NCBI RefSeq assembly: GCF_900112795.1
Contig: NZ_FONA01000012.1
Coordinates: 62,001-126,000 of the forward strand
DNA length: 64,000 nucleotides
Direction of reading: 5' to 3'
Source of the DNA: Thermophagus xiamenensis
GTDB lineage: Bacteria; Bacteroidota; Bacteroidia; Bacteroidales; Marinilabiliaceae
Shown: positions 9,595-62,249 of the stretch, piece by piece
Position numbering within the stretch: the first letter of the stretch is position 1
Layout of the letters: each line of letters starts with the position of its first letter
Made by a program: the position numbers and the translations under genes
The notes under the pieces: model-generated
The model's input: the letters and a program-made list of their open reading frames with translations, nothing else
What the model was told of the DNA's origin: nothing
Database searches by the model: none

Positions 9595-9720
9595 GATTCA
9601 TCAGTATAAAATTTACTTTAGTCATTGGTCTGATGGAACTCCCATGAACAGCAGTTTATAGAGGTTCTTGTCGTGGCAACCATAAGTTGGCCACATTCGT
9701 TTCATTGTCCTATTAATATT
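9595..9720 (-). repeat. Degenerate copy of the dispersed intergenic repeat (copy A)
   Basis: Read on the minus strand this stretch follows the same order as part of the repeat at 26395-26505: a GTTTCAT equivalent, a gap, GGAACTC...CATG, CTGATGGAACTC and TATAAAATTTACTT. It is diverged but collinear, and it lies between the SPOR gene and rnpB, where it may overlap the rnpB promoter. A possible -7 box on the plus strand (TATTTTTG, 9717-9724) sits at its edge. Confidence 0.5.
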
Positions 9721-9781: not shown

Positions 9782-10155
9782 AAAAACAGCAAGCCGGCCT
9801 GTCGCTCCGAAAGGGGAGGAAAGTCCGGACAACGCAGAGCGCCGCGCTTCCTAACGGGAAGATGGTCGTGAGACCATGAAGGTGTAACAGAAAATAACCG
9901 CCTACGGGCAAGGGTGAAAAGGTGGGGTAAGAGCCCACCGGTTCGGATGGTGACATCCGAAGCCGTACACCCCGCGGGTTGCAAGACCATGTATATCCCG
10001 GTTCCTTTTAGGTACGGGGTTGCTCGCTCCGGTTCCTTAGGTTGGAAGCCGGGAAGGGTAGGTCGCTTAAGGGGACAGGTGACTGTCTTCTCAGATAAAT
10101 GACAGGCATCCTGGCAACAGGATACAGAATCCGGCTTACAGGTTTGCTGTTTTTA
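9782..10155 (+). ncRNA. rnpB: RNase P RNA (bacterial type A-like)
   Basis: The catalytic RNA of RNase P, which trims tRNA 5' leaders. The universal core is present: GAGGAAAGTCCGGAC at 9817-9831 (5' half of P4 and CR-I), the AGGGTGAAA segment near 9910, and the 3' signature CAGAATCCGGCTTACAG near 10125-10141. The ends pair as helix P1 (AAACAGCA near 9784 with TGCTGTTT near 10145-10152), which sets the borders. The final T-rich run after P1 may double as a terminator, only 9 bp before the next gene. Apparent short ORFs inside are explained by the RNA. Confidence 0.95.
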
Positions 10156-13861: not shown

Positions 13862-13864
13862 CTT

Positions 13865-14290
13865 AAGTAATATTTATACGGATGAAACGAGCATGGCGAC
13901 TTTTGCAACTAAAAAAGGCAGAAGTGCACAGGCAGAAGGCAGAAGAAGTCAATAGTCATTAGTCATTAGTCATTAGTAAACAGTCATTAGTGTTAATGAA
14001 TTAGTGACTAATCACTAACCACCAATGACTAACCACTAATGACTACCTTTAAGAAGCAATATATCAATGAAGTAAGTAAAATTTATACGAATGAAACGAG
14101 CATGGCGGCTGTTGCCACAAAAGGACATGTATAATAGACAAAGGCAGAAGTGCACAGGCAGAAGGCAGAAGAAGTGATTAGTCATTAGTCAACAAGTGGT
14201 TAGTGTTAAATATCTAGTGACTAACGAACTAATCACTAATGACTGCTTTTAAGAATCAATATATCAATGAAGTAAGTAAATTTTATACGG
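13865..14290 (+). repeat. Dispersed composite repeat, copy B (two tandem units)
   Basis: Fills the whole gap between the hbd-like gene and ackA with two units of about 210 bp. Each has, in order: a leader ending TTTATACG(G/A)ATGAAACG; a ~45-bp module with GCGGCTTTTGCCACAAAAG-type hairpin sequence (diverged in unit 1); the purine-rich AGGCAGAAGTGCACAGGCAG module; and CATTAGT heptamers facing ACTAATG/ACTAACC heptamers, able to form a long hairpin. It ends with the leader module, whose ATG is the ackA start codon. Short ORFs begin at 13882 (26 codons) and 14091 (28 codons). Confidence 0.9.
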
Positions 14291-15523
14291 ATGAAAATAT
14301 TAGTTCTAAACTGCGGTAGTTCTTCAATAAAATATCAGTTGTTCAAAATGGATGACCTCCAGTGGGAGGTTATGGCCAAAGGTGGTGTTGAGAAAGTAGG
14401 GCTTAAAGGTTCCTTTCTTAAGCATGAAAAAGCTTCAGGCGAAAAAGTATTGCTTGAAGGTGAAATCCTTGATCATCAAATCGGAATAGATTATATTCTA
14501 GGTGTTTTAATTAGTGAGAAGCATGGTTGTATTAAAGATCTGGATGAAATTGATGCGGTAGGTCATCGCGTCGTCCATGGTGGTGAGATGTTCAATTCCA
14601 GTGTATTTATTACGGATGAAGTAATTAAAAAAATGGAAGAATGCATCGAGTTGGCGCCATTGCATAATCCGCCCAATCTTAAAGGTATACAAGCAATCTC
14701 TACCTTGCTTCCGGATGTGCCCCAGGTCGGTGTCTTCGATACTGCCTTTCACCAAACCATGCCCAAGCATGCTTTTATGTATGCTATTCCTCAATCTCTT
14801 TATAAGGAATATGGTATTCGACGGTATGGATTTCATGGTACCAGCCATCGTTATGTAAGTCATCGTGCCTGTGAACTGTTGGATTGTGACTATAATACCC
14901 AAAGAATTGTATCGTGTCATTTAGGAAACGGAGCCTCAATAGCGGCCATAAAAAACGGTCAATCGGTAGATACCTCTATGGGCTTTACGCCTATTGAAGG
15001 GCTAATGATGGGCACTCGTTGTGGTGATCTGGATGTCGGAGCGGTGACTTTTATTATGGAAAAGGAAAAAATAGGAACCAGATCGGCTTCTATTTTATTT
15101 AATAAGCATAGTGGGATGCTGGGGGTTACCAACATTTCATCGGATATGAGAGAAATTGAAGAGGCATACGAAAAGGGTGATGAAAACGCTCGCCTGGGGT
15201 TGGAGATGTATTGTTATCGAATTAAAAAATATATTGGTTCTTATGCCGCTGCTATGGGAGGAATTGATATTTTATTGTTTACCGGTGGAATTGGTGAAAA
15301 TGCTGACCTCATTAGAAGTAAAGTATGTGAAAACTTAGATTTCTTAGGAATAAAAATTAATGAATCGAAGAACAAAAATCTTCGTGGTCAGGAAATGGAT
15401 ATTAGCAGTTCGGGAAGCAGGGTAAAGGTAATGGTTGTCCCAACCAATGAAGAATTGGTTATTGCTCAGGATACTAAAGAAATTGTTGAGCAATTGGCCA
15501 ATAGAAAAATTCAAGAACCTTGA
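14291..15523 (+). CDS. ackA: Acetate kinase
   Basis: 410 residues, normal for the family. It interconverts acetyl phosphate + ADP and acetate + ATP. All ASKHA-fold motifs are visible: NCGSSSIKYQLF at ~7-18, GHRVVHGG (~93-100), VFDTAFHQTMP, YGFHGTSHRYV, HLGNGASI, the MGTRCGDLD segment and GGIGEN. With pta it forms the acetate branch of fermentation. The coding start directly abuts repeat copy B: the repeat's TTTATACGG leader supplies all upstream sequence, so promoter and ribosome-binding context must come from repeat DNA. A strong terminator follows. The symbol follows the function; no paralogue is in the window. Confidence 0.96.
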   Translation: MKILVLNCGSSSIKYQLFKMDDLQWEVMAKGGVEKVGLKGSFLKHEKASGEKVLLEGEILDHQIGIDYILGVLISEKHGCIKDLDEIDAVGHRVVHGGEMFNSSVFITDEVIKKMEECIELAPLHNPPNLKGIQAISTLLPDVPQVGVFDTAFHQTMPKHAFMYAIPQSLYKEYGIRRYGFHGTSHRYVSHRACELLDCDYNTQRIVSCHLGNGASIAAIKNGQSVDTSMGFTPIEGLMMGTRCGDLDVGAVTFIMEKEKIGTRSASILFNKHSGMLGVTNISSDMREIEEAYEKGDENARLGLEMYCYRIKKYIGSYAAAMGGIDILLFTGGIGENADLIRSKVCENLDFLGIKINESKNKNLRGQEMDISSSGSRVKVMVVPTNEELVIAQDTKEIVEQLANRKIQEP

Positions 15524-16514: not shown

Positions 16515-16529
16515 AAATTAATCCATATA

Positions 16530-16735
16530 AATATTACTTAAGTTATGGGTTGGATGGAACTTAAAGTTGCTAATTAGTGGTTAGTCGTTAGTCATTAGTC
16601 TTTAGTTATTTAGCACTAACCACTAATGACTGTTGACTATTGACTACTTCAGCCTGTGCACTTCTGCCCTGGGCTTTTATACATGTCCTTTTGTGGTAAA
16701 ATTAGTCATGCTCGTTTCAATAAATTAATGTCTAA
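16530..16735 (-). repeat. Dispersed composite repeat, copy C
   Basis: Minus-strand orientation, between ptb and buk. Read on the minus strand it shows TTGAAACGAGCATG (the ATG of the leader is changed), a diverged ACCACAAAAGGACATGTATAAA module, GGGCAGAAGTGCACAGGC, and the CATTAGT/ACTAATG hairpin, then a fragment like the TTTAAGTTCCAT segment of copy F. Its short ORF start is lost. Confidence 0.85.
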
Positions 16736-26189: not shown

Positions 26190-26692
26190 TGACAATGAAA
26201 CGAGCATGGCGGCTTTTGCCACAAAAGAATATGTATAAAACTGAGGCAGAAGTGCACAGGCAGAAGGCAGAAGAAGTCAATAGTCATTAGTCAACAGTCA
26301 TTAGTGTAAATGGACTAGTGACTAATGACTAACCACTAATGGCTACTTTTAATAAACAATATATCAATGAAGTAAGTAAATTTTATAGGGATGAAACGAG
26401 CATGACTAAGAAGGTTTGTCACAAAAAGAACATGTATAAACTTTAAGACATGCGAGTTCCATCAGGCCAATGAATTAGATAAATTTTATACTGATGAAAC
26501 GAGCATGGCAGCTTTTGCCACAAAAGAACATGTATAAAAACATTGAGGCAGAAGTGCACAGGCAGAAGGCAGAAGTGAAATTTATCGATTTTATGATAGC
26601 GGGTTGGGAAATTTCCCCTTTAGGGGATTAAGGGGTGTGCGTTGGCCATAATGGACTTTAAACTAATTATATAAGTAAATTTTATACGAATG
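26190..26692 (+). repeat. Dispersed composite repeat, copy D (most complete)
   Basis: Three successive leader+hairpin modules start at ATGs 26195, 26391 and 26494. Module 1 is followed by the purine-rich module and the CATTAGT hairpin. Module 2 is followed by a segment GACATGCGAGTTCCATCAGG not seen in copy B. Module 3 is followed by the purine-rich module and an extra block (26575-26670) with GGGAAATTTCCCCTTTAGGG that also occurs in copies E and H. The final leader ends TTTATACGAATGAAA at 26692. Intact short ORFs run 26195-26290 (31 codons) and 26494-26631 (45 codons). Confidence 0.9.
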
Positions 26693-26913: not shown

Positions 26914-28377
26914 ATGATATCTGAACAGCAATTGGGCAAAGCCTTAGAGCATTTTGGCGGAATCATCATGATAACTGATGCTTCGGGCAGAATTCTTTTT
27001 GTTAATGAGCGGTTCGAAAATGTTTATGGCTACGAGAAATCAGAAGTAATAGGGGAAAAACCCTCCATATTGAAGAGTGGTTTTCATTCCCGGCAATTTT
27101 ATGAGGAATTGTGGCAAACTATCTCATCGGGTGATAATTGGCGGGGGGAAATGTTAAACCGATGCAAAAATGGGGAAATAATTACCGAACAAGCCACTAT
27201 ATCTCCGATTTATTCCGAAGGGAAAAAGGAAATTACCGGGTATATAGCCATAAAATTTAATGTAACCGAAAAAGAGAAAATCAAGAAACGCCTTGAATGG
27301 AAAGAACAGTTATTCGAAAAACTTTTTGAAAATTCCCCATTGGGTATATTCATTCTGGAAGAAATCAGCACGGAAGCAGGCATAGTGGATTATATGATAA
27401 CCCGCGCCAACTTAACGGCCTCCGTGATTTTTAACCGTATTTCATTTATTAATCAGAGGCTTTCATCGGTTTTGGAAAACCAGAATTTATCTGCCCTAAT
27501 TCAGGCTCATAAATCGGTTCGGCACGGCGATGAGATTTACGAATGGGAGGATGTATGTAAAGGCAAATATTTGGAATTTAAACTCTTTGCCATCGAAAAA
27601 CATACAAAATGTTTACTTATATCGGATATAAGTAAGAAAGTGAGGATGGAATTGAAGTTAAAAGAGAATGAAAACAGATTGAAGGAATTAAACGAAACAA
27701 AAGATAAGATTTTCAGGATTATTTCCCATGACTTAAGAAATCCCTTTCAAACAATTATTGGCTTCTCCCACTTGTTAAATCAGGGAATAGAGAATTATCC
27801 GCCCGAAACATTGAAAGAAATTGCCGCTCAGGTATGTGAAATATCAGAAAAAAATTATCAGCTCATAGATGACCTTTTGAACTGGTCAAAATCACAACTG
27901 GGACAACTATCGGCAGTTACTGTAAATGTTCCCTTAAAAGAAGTTACAGATAAAGTGGTATCTTACTTAAAACCACAAGCCGACAAAAAAGATATTCAAT
28001 TAATTAATGATATTTCCGATAATGTTGTTGTAAGAGCTGATAAAGATATGACGGAATTTATTATTCGTAATTTGGTTCATAATGGAATAAAATTTACTCG
28101 GGAAGGTGGTTCCGTTTATTGTTTTTCCGAAAAAGACGACCAGCATATCAAAATTCATATAAAGGATACCGGAATCGGCATTCATCCGGATAAAGTTTCG
28201 AAAATATTTTCTTTAACCGGTAATCTGTCTACAAAAGGAACAAGTGAAGAAGCCGGAACGGGATTAGGTTTAATGTTATCATATGAAATGGTAGTTTTAA
28301 ATCACGGAAAAATTGAAGTAGCAAGTGAACCGGGTAAAGGTTCTTGCTTTACAGTAATTTTACCGGCTGCTTCTTAA
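26914..28377 (+). CDS. Soluble PAS-domain sensor histidine kinase
   Basis: 487 residues with no membrane segment. An N-terminal PAS domain with PAC motif (~10-125, ITDASGRILFVNERFENVYGY), a second PAS-like region (~140-245), then a HisKA helix with the phospho-accepting His in IISHDLRNPF (~273-282) and a HATPase domain with N box (NLVHNGIKF), G1 (DTGIGI) and G2 (GTGLGLML). It should autophosphorylate in response to a cytoplasmic cue. No response regulator gene is adjacent, so the partner is unknown. It lies between repeat copy D and the first 41-bp tandem array. Confidence 0.92.
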   Translation: MISEQQLGKALEHFGGIIMITDASGRILFVNERFENVYGYEKSEVIGEKPSILKSGFHSRQFYEELWQTISSGDNWRGEMLNRCKNGEIITEQATISPIYSEGKKEITGYIAIKFNVTEKEKIKKRLEWKEQLFEKLFENSPLGIFILEEISTEAGIVDYMITRANLTASVIFNRISFINQRLSSVLENQNLSALIQAHKSVRHGDEIYEWEDVCKGKYLEFKLFAIEKHTKCLLISDISKKVRMELKLKENENRLKELNETKDKIFRIISHDLRNPFQTIIGFSHLLNQGIENYPPETLKEIAAQVCEISEKNYQLIDDLLNWSKSQLGQLSAVTVNVPLKEVTDKVVSYLKPQADKKDIQLINDISDNVVVRADKDMTEFIIRNLVHNGIKFTREGGSVYCFSEKDDQHIKIHIKDTGIGIHPDKVSKIFSLTGNLSTKGTSEEAGTGLGLMLSYEMVVLNHGKIEVASEPGKGSCFTVILPAAS

Positions 28378-28382
28378 TTTTC

Positions 28383-28811
28383 AATGCTGCATGAAGGTTT
28401 CAAATCACTCTGGAGGCCATTACAACGCTGCATGAAGGTTTCAAATCACTCTGGAAGCCATTACAACGCTGCATGAAGGTTTCAAATCGTTCTGGAAGCC
28501 ATTGCAGCGCTGCATGAAGGTTTCAAATCACTCTGGAGGCCATTGCAACGCTGCATGAAGGTTTCAAATCGTTCTGGAGGCCATTGCAACGCTGCATGAA
28601 GGTTTCAAATCGTTCTGGAGGCCATTGCAGCGCTGCATGAAGGTTTCAAATCGTTCTGGAGGCCATTGCAGCACTGCATGAAGGTTTCAAATCACTCTGG
28701 AAGCCATTGCAGCGCTGCATGAAGGTTTCAAATCACTCTGGAAGCCATTGCAGCGCTGCATGAAGGTTTCAAATCGTTCTGGAGGCCATTGCAGCACTGC
28801 ATGAAGGTTTC
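28383..28811. repeat. 41-bp tandem array 1 (about ten copies)
   Basis: GCTGC begins successive units at 28386, 28427, 28468 and so on, every 41 bp up to 28796. A ~19-bp core (TGCATGAAGGTTTCAAATC) is invariant until the last partial unit. The rest differs at a few fixed sites (CAC/CGT before TCTGG, GGAGG/GGAAG, TTACAAC/TTGCAGC). At several junctions the sequence is the palindrome TGCAGCGCTGCA. There are no unique spacers, so it is not CRISPR, and 41 is not a multiple of 3. It starts 6 bp after the kinase stop codon. Confidence 0.95.
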
Positions 28812-28908
28812 GAAATAGAGCGTAAGATATTACATCAAATATAGAAGTCGTAACAAAAAGTTTGATATAATTGACGTGGCTGGTGGCTTTTAATTACAGC
28901 GCAAAAAT

Positions 28909-32900: not shown

Positions 32901-33410
32901 TTAATCCAAAGCTTTTACTTCGACAAGCACAAAGTTTTCTCTTACCACATCATCTTTTTTAACGGTTACATCTTTAACCACGCCTTTAATGGGTGATTTT
33001 AATTCATTTTCCATTTTCATGGCCGAAAGCACTATTAAAGTTTGGTTTGCCTCAACCAAATCACCAATTTTAACTTTTACCGATACTATTTTACCTGGAA
33101 TAGGTGCTTTTATTTTTTCAATTAATTTTCCGTTTTTAGCGGTGCGGTTGGCCGCTGGTGTGGCAGGGGCTATTTCGATGTCAAACGATTTATATTGGGT
33201 GTTTACTGTATAATGGTTTTTATTGCCATTCTTTATGATTTCCATATTATGGCTTTTACCCTTGTGTAAAACAGAGTACACGCCATTTTCTACTTTTTCA
33301 ATATCCAGTGTATATTCTCTTTCTCCAATGGCAACGGTTAGTAAAGAACCATCTCTGTTTAAAACTTTTATCTCTTCCTGACGATTCCCGTTTTTTGCTA
33401 ATGTTTTCAT
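32901..33410 (-). CDS. Biotin carboxyl carrier protein of an acyl-CoA/pyruvate-type carboxylase
   Basis: 169 residues. A ~70-residue N-terminal beta region, a short linker (APATPAANRTAKNGK) and a C-terminal biotinyl domain with the biotinylated Lys in SAMKMENEL (~135-143). It carries CO2 from the biotin carboxylase encoded just upstream to a carboxyltransferase. The ATG directly abuts repeat copy E, which separates it from the biotin carboxylase gene by ~340 bp. No carboxyltransferase gene is downstream, so that subunit must be encoded elsewhere. Compatible with propionyl-CoA/methylmalonyl-CoA type enzymes. Confidence 0.9.
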   Translation of the reverse strand: MKTLAKNGNRQEEIKVLNRDGSLLTVAIGEREYTLDIEKVENGVYSVLHKGKSHNMEIIKNGNKNHYTVNTQYKSFDIEIAPATPAANRTAKNGKLIEKIKAPIPGKIVSVKVKIGDLVEANQTLIVLSAMKMENELKSPIKGVVKDVTVKKDDVVRENFVLVEVKALD

Positions 33411-33731
33411 CCGTATAAAATTTACTTATATAATTAGTTTAAAGTCCATTATGGCCATCCCTCACCCCTTAATCCCCTAAAGGGGAAATTTCCCAACCCG
33501 CAATCATAAAATCGATAAATCTCACTTCTGCCTTCTGCCTGTGCACTTCTGCCTATATCATTTTATACATGCTCTTTTGTGGCAAAAGCTGCCATGCTCG
33601 TTTCATCCGTATAAATTTTACTTACTTCATTGATATATTGTTTCTTAAAAGTAGTCATTAGTGGTTAGTCGCTAGTCACTAGTTATTTAATACTAACCAC
33701 TTGTTGACTAATGACTATGAACTGCTTTATC
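33404..33731 (-). repeat. Dispersed composite repeat, copy E
   Basis: Minus-strand orientation, filling the gap between the biotin carboxylase and biotin carrier genes. Read on the minus strand: CATTAGT-type hairpin, leader, ATG at 33606 opening MKRAWQLLPQK, purine-rich module, the extra block with GGAAATTTCCCCTTTAGGGG shared with copy D, and a final leader AAATTTTATACGG whose adjoining ATG is the biotin carrier start codon. Compared with copy D3 the inner short ORF has one in-frame TAG after 17 codons but keeps the reading frame beyond it. Confidence 0.92.
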
Positions 33732-33753: not shown

Positions 33754-35265
33754 TTAAAAAGGATTGATTCTGTAGAGACGACCATATTCTTTCCAGTTCG
33801 ATTTATGATGGTGATCAAGAGAAAAGCGCAATCGTTTATCTGAATGTGACTGATGTTCTACATAAGCCATAATCATAGCCAAATCCTCACATTCCAGTTC
33901 ACAAGGTTCTCCTTCGGTAAGGTATTTTTCATTCTTTGAAATAAAATGTGTGTCATATTTACCTTCAATAAAATCGGGGGTATTCATAATTCTTTCAAGG
34001 AACTGAATGTTGGTTTTTACACCGGTAATTTTGTATTCGTACAATGCTCTTTTCATGCGAGCTACGGCCTCTTCACGATTCTGTCCCCAAACGATTAGTT
34101 TTGATATCAAAGGGTCATAAAACACGGTTATTTCATAGCCTTCGTAAATATACCCGTCGGTACGTACTCCTAATCCCAAAGGTTCGGTAATGTGCAATAC
34201 TTTACCGGCACCCGGCATAAAATTATTTTGAGGATCTTCTGCATAAATTCTGCATTCAATGGCATGCCCGGTTCTTTTGATATCCTCTTGATTAAAAGGG
34301 AGAGGCTCTCCGTTGGCAATTTTTATTTGAGCTTTAACCAGGTCGATACCGGTAGTTCTTTCGGTGATTGGGTGTTCTACCTGTAATCGTGTATTCATCT
34401 CCAGAAAATAAAAATTCATGTGGGCATCCACCAGGAACTCTACTGTTCCTGCCCCTTTGTAGTTAACCGAAGCAGCGGCAGCCACGGCTCTGTCGGTCAT
34501 GGCTTTTCGCACCTCGTCGGTAATAAAGGGCGAAGGGGTTTCTTCTACAACCTTTTGGTGTCGGCGTTGCACAGAGCATTCCCGTTCAAAAAGATGAACA
34601 ATGTTTCCGTAGTTATCACCCAAAATTTGTACTTCAATATGGTGAGGCGATTGTAAATATTTTTCCATATAAACAGTATCATCACCAAAGGCATTTTGTG
34701 CTTCGGATTTTGCACGCCTTACGGCATCTATAATTTCATCCGGACTCCAAACAAGCCGCATTCCCTTACCGCCGCCTCCGGCCGAGGCTTTTATCATTAC
34801 CGGATAACCAATTTCTTCAGCAATTTTTTTAATTGAGTCTTCGTCCGTGTCATCCAGCTTACCTGAGCCGGGAACTACCGGAACGCCGGCTTTAATCATT
34901 AATTCTCGGGCTTTCATTTTGTCGCCCATCACGCGTATGGCTTCGGCATCCGGGCCAATAAAAATAAGTCCTGCTTCACGCACCTTCTCAGCAAACTCTG
35001 CGTTTTCGGAAAGAAAGCCATAACCCGGATGAATGGCGTCGGCACCGCTTTCTCTGGCAATTTCTATAATTCTTGGAATGTTGAGATAACTTTGCCCTGA
35101 AGGACCCGGGCCTGCCCAATAAGCTTCGTCGGCATAGCGAACGTGCATTGATGTTCTGTCGGGTTCGGAATAAATGGCCACACTCTTAATGTTTGCTTCG
35201 CGGCATGAACGTATGATGCGTACCGCTATTTCGCCCCGGTTGGCCACTAAAACTTTTTTTATCAT
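33754..35265 (-). CDS. accC: Biotin carboxylase subunit (acetyl/propionyl-CoA carboxylase type)
   Basis: 503 residues from ATG 35265 (MIKKVLVANRGEIAVRIIRS); a longer frame adds 25 unlikely residues. ATP-grasp enzyme that carboxylates biotin with bicarbonate. Motifs: HPGYGFLSENAEFA, the glycine-rich KASAGGGGKGMR, HIEVQILGD, FERECSVQRRHQK, EMNTRLQVEHPITE and a long C-terminus ending KSNWKEYGRLYRINPF. It is probably the start of a transcript with the biotin carrier gene, interrupted by repeat copy E. The symbol reflects subunit type; the physiological acyl-CoA is not determined. Confidence 0.93.
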   Translation of the reverse strand: MIKKVLVANRGEIAVRIIRSCREANIKSVAIYSEPDRTSMHVRYADEAYWAGPGPSGQSYLNIPRIIEIARESGADAIHPGYGFLSENAEFAEKVREAGLIFIGPDAEAIRVMGDKMKARELMIKAGVPVVPGSGKLDDTDEDSIKKIAEEIGYPVMIKASAGGGGKGMRLVWSPDEIIDAVRRAKSEAQNAFGDDTVYMEKYLQSPHHIEVQILGDNYGNIVHLFERECSVQRRHQKVVEETPSPFITDEVRKAMTDRAVAAAASVNYKGAGTVEFLVDAHMNFYFLEMNTRLQVEHPITERTTGIDLVKAQIKIANGEPLPFNQEDIKRTGHAIECRIYAEDPQNNFMPGAGKVLHITEPLGLGVRTDGYIYEGYEITVFYDPLISKLIVWGQNREEAVARMKRALYEYKITGVKTNIQFLERIMNTPDFIEGKYDTHFISKNEKYLTEGEPCELECEDLAMIMAYVEHQSHSDKRLRFSLDHHHKSNWKEYGRLYRINPF

Positions 35266-35565
35266 ATGCGAAGGTTGTAAATAATCTTGTCGTAATGTTA
35301 ACAAAGTTGAAGGATTTGGGTTCAAATTATGGGGACTCAAGACTTTCTTTGTTAGAGTAATTTTTGGGTGGGGAATTCGGGGTTTATAGGGGTATTAAGA
35401 GGAAAATACATCTGACTTATTGGTAATGAATGAGAATGATTTTTAAGCAATGGCTGTGTTTATTAAGATTTATTATAAATTATATTCAAGGCTAAAAAGC
35501 AGGAAGAAAGAAGAAAATTAATGCCTTATCTTTAATGCAGAAAAACAAATAAAACAAGGAAAATT
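35266..35565. other. Divergent intergenic region between biotin carboxylase and ferritin genes
   Basis: 300 bp that must hold promoters for both flanking genes. The best ferritin candidate is a near-consensus -7 box (TATCTTTA, 35527-35534). I see no clear box for the minus strand and no obvious Fur or DtxR palindrome. Confidence 0.4.
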
Positions 35566-40433: not shown

Positions 40434-40665
40434 TATAAGTAAGGATGAAATGAGCTCGAACACTTAAGTGTGTCACAACAAGAACATGTAATTTAAAGGA
40501 AGAAGTGCCCAGGAAGAAGAAGTCATTAGTGGTTAGTCAATAATCATTAGTGTTGATTTACTTATGACTAACCACTAACCACTAATCACTAATCACTAAC
40601 TTTAAGTTCCATTCGACCAATTAGTTAAGTAAGCTTTATGCGAATAAATAAACCCGGTATAGACT
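40434..40665 (+). repeat. Dispersed composite repeat, copy F (diverged)
   Basis: Plus orientation, in the 377-bp gap between the TPR and DUF4301 genes. It keeps TAAGTAAGGATGAAATGAGC, ACAAGAACATGTA, a shortened purine-rich part, the CATTAGT/ACTAACC hairpin, and a tail with TTTAAGTTCCATTCGACC and AAGTAAGCTTTATGCGAA. The internal ORF is broken by TGA after two codons. No other gene is seen in the gap. Confidence 0.8.
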
Positions 40666-42241: not shown

Positions 42242-42867
42242 AGATAATGGTTTTTGGTTTCGGAAAATAAGGAAAATTTACTTAGTGCACAAAACTGATC
42301 GCTCAAGACACAAACAACTCACCTTCTGTCCTGATGATTGGTCAGGGTTGTTAACTTATTTAAGTTGTTAGCTTAAAGTAATTAACTTTGATAATAAAAA
42401 TCAATTCGATTGTTACAATTGCTAATATACTTTCCTGTATCATTATATAAAAAAACGATATTCATTAGGCTCACAGAACTCGCATGTCCTAAAATTTATA
42501 ATGGGATATCCTTAGTTGGCTATTAACAGTAAATTCAATGGATGTCTTATAAATAGATTTTCAGCCGAATTACAAAAAGAAAACACGGGATTAAGAAGAT
42601 TGTTTTTATTTTTTCTAGTGGGGGATAAATTAGAAATGCAATAATATTTTTTCGAACAAAAAGAAAAAATAAATTGACTTTTCATATTTGAATGTCTATC
42701 TTTTGTCGCATAAAAATTTGTGTGAAAGATAAATATGTTTTCGACCGTTTTGGTTTAATGATTTCGACCCTTTAATTAAACATTATTTCCCTGGAAGGTA
42801 AAAGGAAGTCCCATTTATCTCTGCCACATTAGTTTCAAAATTTTTTAATTCCATTAATTTTCTATTT
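42242..42867. other. Long intergenic region upstream of the FadL-type gene
   Basis: 626 bp without a convincing gene. A segment near 42455-42510 (CAGAACTCGCATGTCC...AAATTTATAA) resembles the GAGTTCCATC part of the dispersed repeat. A possible promoter for the porin gene is TTG at 42674-42676 spaced 20 bp from TATCTTTTG at 42697-42705, giving a ~155-nt leader. Both are weak. Confidence 0.4.
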
Positions 42868-50440: not shown

Positions 50441-51176
50441 CGGCTGGAATCGAATCTAAAATTTTTTAGGTCGAAAATCAGCGGCCGAAATTGAATCTAA
50501 AATTTTTTAGATCGAAAATCAACGGCCGAAATCGAATCTAAAATTTTTCAGGACGAAAATCGACGGCCGAAATTGAATCTGTAAAATTACAGGCCGAAAA
50601 TCGACGGCCGAAAATGAATCTGTAAAATTACAGGCCGAAAATTGACGGCCGAAATCGAATCTGTAAAATTACAGGCCGAAAATTGACGGCCGAAATCGAA
50701 TCTGTAAAATTACAGGCCGAAAATCGACGTCCGAAATTGAATCTGTAAAATTACAGGCCGAAAATTGACGTCCGAAATTGAATCTGTAAAATTATAGGTC
50801 GAAAATTGACGGCCGGAATTGAATCTGTAAAATTATAGGCCGAAAATTGACGTCCGGAATTGAATCTGTAAAATTATAGGCCGAAAATTGACGTCCGAAA
50901 TTGAATCTGTAAAATTACAGGTCGAAAATTGACGTCCGAAATTGAATCTGTAAAATTACAGGTCGAAAATTGACGTCCGAAATTGAATCTGTAAAATTAT
51001 AGGTCGAAAATTGACGGCCGGAATTGAATCTGTAAAATTACAGGCCGAAAATCAACGGCCGAAATCGAATCTGTAAAATTACAGGCCGAAAATCGACGGC
51101 CGGAATCGAATCTGTAAAATTATAGGTCGAAAATTGACGTCCGAAATTGAATCTGTAAAATTACAGGTCGAAAATC
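50441..51176. repeat. 41-bp tandem array 2 (about eighteen copies)
   Basis: Units begin CGGCC/CGTCC at 50441 and every 41 bp to 51138. Each holds two small inverted repeats: GGCCG/CGGCC-type arms around AAAAT(C/T)GA, and a 14-bp core that is CTAAAATTTTTTAG in the first units and CTGTAAAATTACAG later. Both cores are self-complementary. Many later units read CTGTAAAATTATAG, with one G:T pair. There are no unique spacers. It fills the gap between the dtxR-like gene and the restriction locus; a GCGGAGACGAAGAGACGC motif lies just before it. Confidence 0.95.
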
Positions 51177-54440: not shown

Positions 54441-54444
54441 AATC

Positions 54445-54545
54445 GTCTGAACTTTGATTCATTTGATATTGGGATTCCCCTGATTTTTTTGTTTATACTT
54501 CTTATTTACCAGCCGTTTAAATTGTAAACTTTTTGCTCCGAAATT
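54445..54545 (-). pseudogene. Relic of a second GxxExxY gene 3' end (duplicate of 54594-54690)
   Basis: This 101-bp stretch repeats 54594-54690 with one base change and a 4-bp (TTTA) difference. On the minus strand it encodes FGAKSLQFKRLVNKK, the usual C-terminal end of GxxExxY proteins, so a second gene copy probably stood here. Only this end remains, directly upstream of hsdR. Confidence 0.7.
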
Positions 54546-54654
54546 GTCTTGAACTATGATTTTTCTTGATTGAATGAAAACTATGATTCCATTGTCTGAA
54601 CTTTGATTCATTTGATATTGGGATTTCCCTGATTTTTTTGTTTATACTTCTTAT

Positions 54655-55041
54655 TTACCAGCCGAATTGTAAACTTTTTGCTCCGAAATTAATTAATAAT
54701 CCAACTTCTAAATCATATGCTTCCAAATAATTAATAGCTTGAGCTAAATGTACGTCTTCGAGTTTTGTGATTGCCTTTAGTTCCACTGAAATAACTTTTT
54801 CCACCAAAAAATCAACCCTACGTGTGCCGATTTGTTGATTTTTATAATAAACAGGCATTTCATATTCCCTGCTATAGGCAATACCTTCGTCAGCCATTTC
54901 TATGGCCAGAGCCCTTTGATAAATTACTTCCTGAAATCCGTTGCCCAACGCAGCATGAACCTTCATGGCGCAGCCAATAATTTTACCGGTCAGTTCGCTG
55001 TATTTATACGCTTTATTAATCATCTGTAATCCTTTAATCAT
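54655..55041 (-). CDS. GxxExxY protein
   Basis: About 128 residues (ATG 55041; ATG 55023 is also possible). The family motif is present as GNGFQEVIYQRAL, followed by the PD-(D/E)xK-like strand pattern RRVDFLVEKVISVELKAI. Members are often called possible nucleases but their role is unproven. It sits within the hsdMSR locus between hsdS (25 bp upstream) and hsdR. The C-terminus ends LQFGW because a 4-bp deletion relative to the nearby relic shifts the frame; the usual end reads LQFKRLVN. Confidence 0.85.
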   Translation of the reverse strand: MIKGLQMINKAYKYSELTGKIIGCAMKVHAALGNGFQEVIYQRALAIEMADEGIAYSREYEMPVYYKNQQIGTRRVDFLVEKVISVELKAITKLEDVHLAQAINYLEAYDLEVGLLINFGAKSLQFGW

Positions 55042-62084: not shown

Positions 62085-62249
62085 TCAATTTCATGATTGC
62101 GAGCGGGGAATTTCCCTTTAGGCGATTAAGGGATGAGCGTTGGCTATCATTATATTATGTGGTTGCATTAATGACTATTGACTAACCCCCAAAAACTAAT
62201 TTTAAGGTCAATCTAATCAATAACCTAAGTGATGTTTAGGCTGATAAAC
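62085..62249 (+). repeat. Dispersed composite repeat, copy H (diverged)
   Basis: Keeps the extra block seen in copies D and E (TTTCATGATTGCGAGCGGGG, AATTTCCCTTTAGGCGATTA), a remnant of the heptamer hairpin (ATTAATGACTATTGACTAACC) and a tail resembling the leader (AACCTAAGTGATGTTTAGG). Between the WcaF-like and RemB-like genes, which converge. Confidence 0.6.

What the first reader, a model, noticed from the sequence alone, without database searches (positions are those of the whole stretch)
26190..26692. Modular dispersed intergenic repeat family with at least eight copies
Copies or parts occur at 9595-9720 (-), 13865-14290 (+, two units), 16530-16735 (-), 26190-26692 (+), 33404-33731 (-), 40434-40665 (+), ~42455-42510 and 62085-62249 (+). 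Modules are reused in different combinations: leader AAGTAAATTTTATACGG, hairpin core CTTTTGCCACAAAAG between CATG motifs, purine-rich AGGCAGAAGTGCACAGGCAG, CATTAGT-heptamer hairpin, and a block with AAATTTCCCCTTTAGGGG. All copies are intergenic. No transposase is linked, so they may be mobilised in trans or spread by recombination. I do not know of a named family matching it.
Basis: partly seen in the sequence, partly recalled or inferred. Interest (0 to 1): 0.7.

Follow-up and report, generated by a model that had tools for sequence, protein, structure and literature searches.

The report
Mobile DNA that rebuilds start codons
A gene-free piece of DNA about 95 letters long, found in many Bacteroidota, has jumped repeatedly into the first codon of genes and puts the start signal back as it lands, which looks like a new way for a genomic parasite to avoid doing harm.

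Summary
The repeat family is real and genome-wide (98 matches in its own 3.9-Mb genome). Its basic unit is ~93-105 bp: AT|GAAACGAGCATG-hairpin-CATGCGAGTTCCAT-NNN-A/T-rich linker-N'N'N'-AT|GAA. NNN and N'N'N' covary (87 of 122 units exact complements; shuffled mean 22). The long copies in the window are local derivatives carrying other repeats.

A covariance model finds it in 46 of 71 family genomes and 30 of 296 sampled phylum genomes; one chromosome has 146 copies, many nearly identical. Three clean occupied/empty comparisons show exact insertion without target-site duplication, one of them inside the start codon of a 487-codon ORF, which the element's own 'AT' rebuilds. Right ends open an ORF in 71 of 108 and 23 of 30 units examined, against ~20% of non-coding ATGAA sites. 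The window's array before acetate kinase is missing at the same place in a relative.

Best reading: a non-autonomous mobile element with hairpin ends and an anti-start-codon guide, moved in trans. The enzyme is unknown: no Y1 gene is bracketed by it, one IS110 gene sits inside a copy, and no replication-strand bias was seen. No Rfam match. Mobility and start-codon insertion are shown; guide function and enzyme class are inferred.

The parts
13862..13883 (+). Right-end-like remnant, directly after the stop codon of the 3-hydroxyacyl-CoA dehydrogenase ORF
13884..14092 (+). Long unit with GGCAGAA and CATTAGT heptamers
14093..14292 (+). Second long unit; its last two bases are the AT of the acetate kinase start codon
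   Evidence: array absent from the orthologous place in G013
14291..15523 (+). Acetate kinase ORF whose ATG is completed by the array
   Evidence: PF00871, E=1.8e-155
26197..26392 (+). Long unit with heptamers
26393..26495 (+). Short, canonical unit with both stem halves (GAAACGAGCATG..CATGCGAGTTCCATCAG..)
   Evidence: E=2.1e-11
26496..26691 (+). Long unit with the AAATTTCCCCTTTAGGGG block; the ATG at 26690 opens only 29 codons
33605..33717 (-). Remnant of a heptamer-type long unit upstream of the next unit
33409..33604 (-). Long unit with the AAATTTCCCC block, ending in the AT of the start codon of the 33410 ORF
32901..33410 (-). Biotin/lipoyl carrier ORF downstream of the array (biotin carboxylase ORF upstream, 33754-35340)
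9600..9703 (-). Short unit, antisense, ~80 bp upstream of the RNase P RNA gene (9786-10154)
   Evidence: E=1.7e-6
16521..16718 (-). Long unit with heptamers; right junction reads ATTAA, not ATGAA
40447..40645 (+). Diverged long unit; right junction ATAAA
42476..42500 (-). Small remnant of a 3' stem half
62085..62245 (+). Left-truncated long unit

Best explanation
It is a non-autonomous mobile element, ~93-105 bp in its basic form. It inserts without target-site duplication in front of GAA, mostly between the T and the GAA of ATGAA, above all the ATGAA of start codons. Its right end supplies ...NNNAT, so the gene keeps an ATG and gets a new A/T-rich leader: a safe-harbour strategy. Tandem arrays are read as later copies landing in the ATGAA of resident copies. 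SHOWN: genome-wide and phylum-wide presence, a conserved two-hairpin structure with covariation, exact insertion at three orthologous sites, start-codon enrichment. INFERRED: the ends are recognised as single-stranded hairpins; TTCCAT-NNN is a guide that pairs with both junctions and with the target start codon, as the guides of IS608 pair with their cleavage sites; an enzyme acting in trans cuts and joins. The enzyme is not identified; a Y1/HUH type is my first guess, at about 0.35 for that step alone.
For: Exact insertions: L060 (94 bp in a start codon, 487-codon ORF) empty in DSM 12881, L078 (97 bp) empty in Valhall, L048 (93 bp) empty in G073. The L048 target GAAC|GAAATA has no AT, so the right AT is the element's own. 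Window array absent before acetate kinase in G013. Insertions into another repeat. Covariation NNN/N'N'N' 87 of 122, shuffled mean 22 and maximum 34; 96.4% of cells paired, 47 double-change cells against 15.6 shuffled. Right end at an ORF of at least 100 codons in 71 of 108 terminal units, at an ORF of at least 80 in 23 of the 30 best G078 copies, against 0.19-0.21 of non-coding ATGAA sites. Recent activity: 22 of those 30 copies share an exact 33-nt left part, mean pairwise identity 0.96 over 92 nt. NNN pairing is as exact at non-ORF copies (26 of 37) as at ORF starts (52 of 71), as expected if it serves movement.
Against: No enzyme found. None of 50 Y1 loci (about 1.5 kb each side) has ends on both sides; L186 has copies on one side only. 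Y1 genes missing at E<=0.001 in 6 of 46 carriers; the association (40 of 46 carriers, 13 of 25 others, p=0.003) vanishes without genus g6 (p=0.62). No replication-strand bias beyond that of genes in G078 (94 of 146 units; 64% of ORF bases leading, summed by hand), unlike the lagging-strand preference reported for IS608. Long types in G000 lack TTCCAT-NNN but are numerous. As single-stranded DNA only some copies fold better than shuffles: z -0.65 to -3.87 for six. One control is weak: pairs with a change on both sides, 4 against 2.8, reached by 58 of 500 shuffles. Start-codon excess may come partly from survival rather than targeting.
Confidence: 0.6

Rival explanations
1. Same mobile element, but moved as double-stranded DNA by a site-specific recombinase (tyrosine type, or IS110 type with a bridge-like RNA) whose shared crossover core is (A)TGAA; the hairpins matter little, or act as RNA.
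For: Circle junction NNNAT|GAAAC and target share ATGAA, and both junctions keep it without duplication. No strand bias. Guide-donor covariation recalls bridge RNAs (PMC11208160, passages). In G061 an IS110 gene sits inside a unit of an array (L261).
Against: IS110-type genes (PF02371) in only 18 of 46 carriers and 4 of 25 others (p=0.06); in L261 the IS110 gene may simply have used the repeat as its target, and the four other IS110 loci looked at carry no unit. Tyrosine recombinases were not searched.
Confidence: 0.25
2. Cis-regulatory RNA leader: a hairpin (CAU-NNN/NNN-AUG) hides the start codon, and pairing of TTCCAT with the upstream ATGAA releases it, as in a riboswitch or attenuator; presence at genes is selected.
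For: AUG less accessible with the element in predicted folds: mean unpaired 0.19 against 0.45 for joined flanks, lower in 54 of 70. RNA folds of five copies z -1.14 to -4.04. Strong start-codon enrichment.
Against: Orthologous genes without it, copies inside another repeat and antisense copies, mixed downstream genes, pairing equally exact at non-ORF copies.
Confidence: 0.08
3. Not a transposing element: arrays spread only by homologous exchange and unequal crossing-over between resident copies.
For: Long types in G000 nearly always follow a right-end-like sequence; no enzyme found.
Against: Exact solo insertions at otherwise intact orthologous sites and nearly identical copies at different ORFs in G078.
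Confidence: 0.04

Closest known systems
IS200/IS605-type elements (IS608) and their non-autonomous derivatives
   Same: No target duplication, ends not inverted repeats, hairpins near the ends, pairing between an internal guide and the element's last bases (PMC5934647 and PMC6006769, passages).
   Different: No transposase with these ends; no lagging-strand signal; a guide that fits ATGAA plus three variable bases instead of a tetranucleotide; lands at start codons.
REP/BIME elements moved by TnpA-REP (RAYT)
   Same: Many small structured intergenic repeats in a genome, moved in trans.
   Different: No GTAG or CGTC tag at a hairpin foot in the consensus (tags from PMC8266576 and PMC3733652, passages); G000's only Y1 gene has a different repeat beside it (L179); exact start-codon insertion.
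Bacterial MITEs
   Same: Short, gene-free, dispersed, moved in trans.
   Different: No terminal inverted repeats and no target duplication.
IS110 bridge-RNA elements
   Same: Guide segment covaries with the element's end.
   Different: No recombinase gene inside; IS110-type genes in only 18 of 46 carriers.

Membership tests
IS200/IS605-type, non-autonomous | Insertion without target-site duplication | tested here: met
   Three orthologous empty sites
IS200/IS605-type, non-autonomous | Structured subterminal hairpins | tested here: inconclusive
   Helices supported by covariation, but DNA fold z-scores mixed
IS200/IS605-type, non-autonomous | Guide sequence pairing with the cleavage site | tested here: inconclusive
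   NNN/N'N'N' covariation; long types lack the guide
IS200/IS605-type, non-autonomous | A Y1 transposase gene carried between the same ends | tested here: not met
   0 of 50 Y1 loci
IS200/IS605-type, non-autonomous | Bias to the lagging-strand template | tested here: not met
   One genome, no bias beyond that of ORFs
REP/RAYT | GTAG or CGTC tag at the hairpin foot | tested here: not met
   Consensus, by eye
REP/RAYT | Copies flanking the RAYT gene | tested here: not met
   L179 carries another repeat
MITE | Terminal inverted repeats and target duplication | tested here: not met
IS110 bridge RNA | Recombinase gene of the IS110 family within the element | tested here: inconclusive
   None in the units seen; one IS110 gene lies inside a unit in L261
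Cis-regulatory RNA | Kept at orthologous genes | tested here: not met
   Acetate kinase: only G000 read as occupied among the 30 loci shown; empty sites; one shared site, L069
Rfam families | Score above a family's gathering threshold | tested here: not met
   (only RNase P in the window); one search lists three sub-threshold miRNA models
Integron attC | RYYYAAC ... GTTRRRY boxes (recalled) | tested here: not met
   Consensus, by eye; no integrase search was made

The most novel reading that the evidence does not exclude
A phylum-wide class of gene-free elements carries an anti-start-codon guide (TTCCAT-NNN) that directs insertion into start codons, a guided safe harbour at translation start sites, moved by an enzyme not yet linked to any such repeat.
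Probability: 0.4. Interest if true: 0.9.

Novelty: new variant of a known kind. Interest (0 to 1): 0.75.

Why it matters
If right, start codons are an insertion niche: a parasite can enter the most sensitive spot of a gene, leave the protein intact and replace its leader. It would be a frequent source of new 5' untranslated regions in Bacteroidota, whose ribosomes do not use Shine-Dalgarno signals (PMC9976891, abstract in a search listing), which may be why such a change is tolerated (inference). Finding the enzyme could yield a guided insertion tool that leaves no duplication.

Tried and rejected
Conserved upstream peptide from the left ATG: rejected; 47 of 105 frames stop within 15 nt, 20 run to or past the right ATG. 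Autonomous copy in G078: four unpaired exact right ends were inspected, no gene inside, only degenerate left parts (the match list was cut). Y1 and IS110 co-occurrence: see the Against line. My notes say 'no correlation'; one search corrects that for Y1, and one search corrects the idea that no IS110 gene touches a copy. Plasmid and phage collections: no match for one G078 copy. IMG/VR: one contig, where the right end opens a 137-codon ORF. Literature: (open-licence PMC only; listings read) gave no description of this family.

Empty-site query, 10 sites: 3 clear exact empty sites (L060, L078, L048); 2 spanned only at 71-76% identity (L121 in G022, G073, G075, where realignment recovered just the right flank; L092 in G075); 1 occupied in both Anaerophaga genomes (L069); 4 inconclusive (L062, L099, L107, L119). 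The pair L066/L102 keeps length only in my hand alignment; MAFFT misaligned it. In the four occupied copies of the other repeat the empty copies read GC, GT or AC where the joined flanks give GA, and L127 has an altered right flank.

Rows dropped or partial: 10 of 132 units had no right ATGAA. One search counts some units twice. The 'element-like' flag used a loose pattern. In one search, 16 of 30 distant loci were not evaluated for a downstream ORF. The 30 G078 copies are the best-scoring of 146.

Full report
WHAT IS THERE. A BLAST of window:26470-26700 against the own genome (G000, 3.9 Mb in 58 contigs, unnamed) gives 98 matches at E<=0.001. Of 40 relatives, 9 have a match. In the three with most family-type matches (G022, G013, G004) nearly all lie in query bases 1-73, while G037, of another family, matches only bases 134-172, the AAATTTCCCC block. 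So the shared core is GATGAAACGAGCATG..hairpin..ACATGTATAAA, and the AAATTTCCCC block is an independent repeat.

THE BASIC UNIT. I took 132 units from them. Anatomy: (A)T|GAAACGAGCATG - variable hairpin - CATGCGAGTTCCAT - NNN - ACC, A/T-rich linker - N'N'N'AT|GAA. N'N'N' is the exact complement of NNN in 87 of 122 units with a right ATGAA; random re-pairing gives 22 on average and 34 at most in 1,000 trials. On a 50-sequence alignment the helices AAC..GCATG/CATGC..GTT and CATNNN/NNNATG pair in 96.4% of cells, with 47 double-change cells against 15.6 in shuffles (0 of 500); slid controls pair in 12-38%. The number of pairs with a double change (4 against 2.8) is reached by 58 of 500 shuffles, because the scan fixed most stem letters. 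In distant genomes the first stem is rewritten but still pairs: AACCTGCTTT/AAAGCAGGTT in L232, ATGCCCAT/ATGGGCAT in L229, AACGC/GCGTT in L233, while TTCCAT and ATGAA mostly stay (by eye). Rfam has no family for it.

DISTRIBUTION. In an even sample of the phylum 30 of 296 genomes match at E<=0.01, G000 included, three of them outside the class; about three would be expected by chance, and 22 of the 29 others have a best E below 0.001. One 5.9-Mb chromosome (G078) holds 146 matches; of the 30 best, 22 share an exact 33-nt left part and are 0.96 identical on average over 92 nt, so it moved recently there.

IT INSERTS EXACTLY. In one search I searched five relatives with the joined flanks of ten occupied sites. 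Three gave clean empty sites. Valhall L060 carries 94 bp inside the start codon of a 487-codon ORF, where DSM 12881 reads ..AAAG|ATGAAACTATCAG. L078 carries 97 bp absent from Valhall. Marinilabilia L048 carries 93 bp at GAAC|GAAATA; this target has no AT, so the AT at the right end is the element's own. Two further sites were spanned at 71-76% identity only, one was occupied in both genomes, four were inconclusive. Four copies sit at one place inside another ~145-bp repeat, of which seven empty copies were aligned. The target is not duplicated: units whose right junction reads TAAA or TTAA still begin with GAA (window 16521-16718, L061; 40447-40645 likewise). In the window, the array 13862-14292 lies between the stop codon of a 3-hydroxyacyl-CoA dehydrogenase ORF and the ATG of acetate kinase; in G013 the same two are 11 bp apart with no element.

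START CODONS. The right-junction ATG opens an ORF of at least 100 codons in 71 of 108 terminal units. With a limit of 80 codons: 40 of 47 in L048-L127 outside Anaerophaga and Marinilabilia, 11 of 30 in those two genera, 20 of 31 in L128-L158, and 23 of the 30 best G078 copies. If insertion fell evenly on ATGAA sites outside coding sequence, 0.21 (G078 sample) or 0.19 (loci) would be ORF starts; the excess gives p=1e-10 and 3e-26. The baseline uses mechanical ORF starts and misses some true starts; selection against harmful insertions must add to the excess, so targeting and survival are not separated. The left flank shows AT at -2/-1 (96 A, 102 T of 108) and an A peak at -14 (75 of 108), like a natural start region.

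HOW IT MAY WORK. TTCCAT-NNN pairs with the right junction NNN-ATGAA and, less exactly, with the left junction ATGAAAC and with any ATGAA target. IS608 chooses its target by such pairing between a guide beside a hairpin and the cleavage site (PMC5934647, PMC6006769, passages). NNN pairing is as exact at non-ORF copies (26 of 37) as at ORF starts (52 of 71), which fits a role in movement rather than in gene control. Against an IS608-type enzyme: no bias to a replication strand beyond that of ORFs in G078 (94 of 146 units; 64% of ORF bases on the leading strand, summed by hand); no Y1 gene between these ends in 50 loci; Y1 genes missing at E<=0.001 in 6 of 46 carriers; and G000's long types lack the guide. 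The Y1 association (40 of 46 carriers, 13 of 25 others) disappears without one genus. IS110-type genes occur in 18 of 46 carriers and 4 of 25 others. In G061 an IS110 gene lies inside a unit of an array (L261): either the IS uses this repeat as its target, as IS110 elements are reported to use REP elements (PMC11208160, passage), or it is a hint at the mover. The enzyme is therefore open, and double-strand recombination around a shared ATGAA core is the main rival.

SIDE EFFECT. In predicted RNA folds of 70 sites the AUG is less accessible with the element (mean unpaired 0.19) than with joined flanks (0.45). That may dampen or regulate translation, but empty orthologues and mixed downstream genes argue against regulation as its reason to exist.

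LONG TYPES. In the 50 G000 loci fetched, classed 88 entries: 32 short, 33 with heptamers, 20 with the AAATTTCCCC block, 3 other; some units are counted twice. Long types almost always follow a right-end-like sequence, so exchange between arrays may spread them.

NOVELTY. The searches (open-licence PMC papers only) listed no paper that I recognised as describing this family. I rate it a new variant of a known kind, the non-autonomous mobile element; the start-codon niche and the guide-like covariation are what set it apart.

Noticed in passing
window 28386-28816 and 50468-51175: Two tandem arrays with the same period of 41 bp (10.5 and 17.3 copies) but different units; one begins just after the sensor histidine kinase ORF 26914-28377.
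   Followed up: no
window 54442-54690: A 74-nt and a 26-nt direct repeat, each with two copies ~145-149 bp apart (97% and 100% identical).
   Followed up: no
L179 (G000:C53, around 226377): The genome's only Y1 transposase-like gene sits among a different repeat (GTCGTTGTGGATTTGTAATCCACAACG...), which looks like a REP family of its own.
   Followed up: partly
Anaerophaga loci L060, L062, L072, L077, L094, L119, L127, L145, L150, L152: Another repeat of ~145 bp (GAGCCCGGTCTAAAAAGCAT...), present in many copies, serves as a landing place for the element.
   Followed up: partly
L261 1282-2890 (G061:C65): An IS110-type gene with a partial internal duplication (349-350 bp) and single N bases lies inside a unit of an array.
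   Followed up: partly
L348 (G078:C3:2724500-2733000): A cluster of duplicated related ORFs with elements just upstream of several of them, possibly copied along with the genes.
   Followed up: no
L344 (IMG/VR contig): A viral contig carries one unit whose right end opens a 137-codon ORF.
   Followed up: partly
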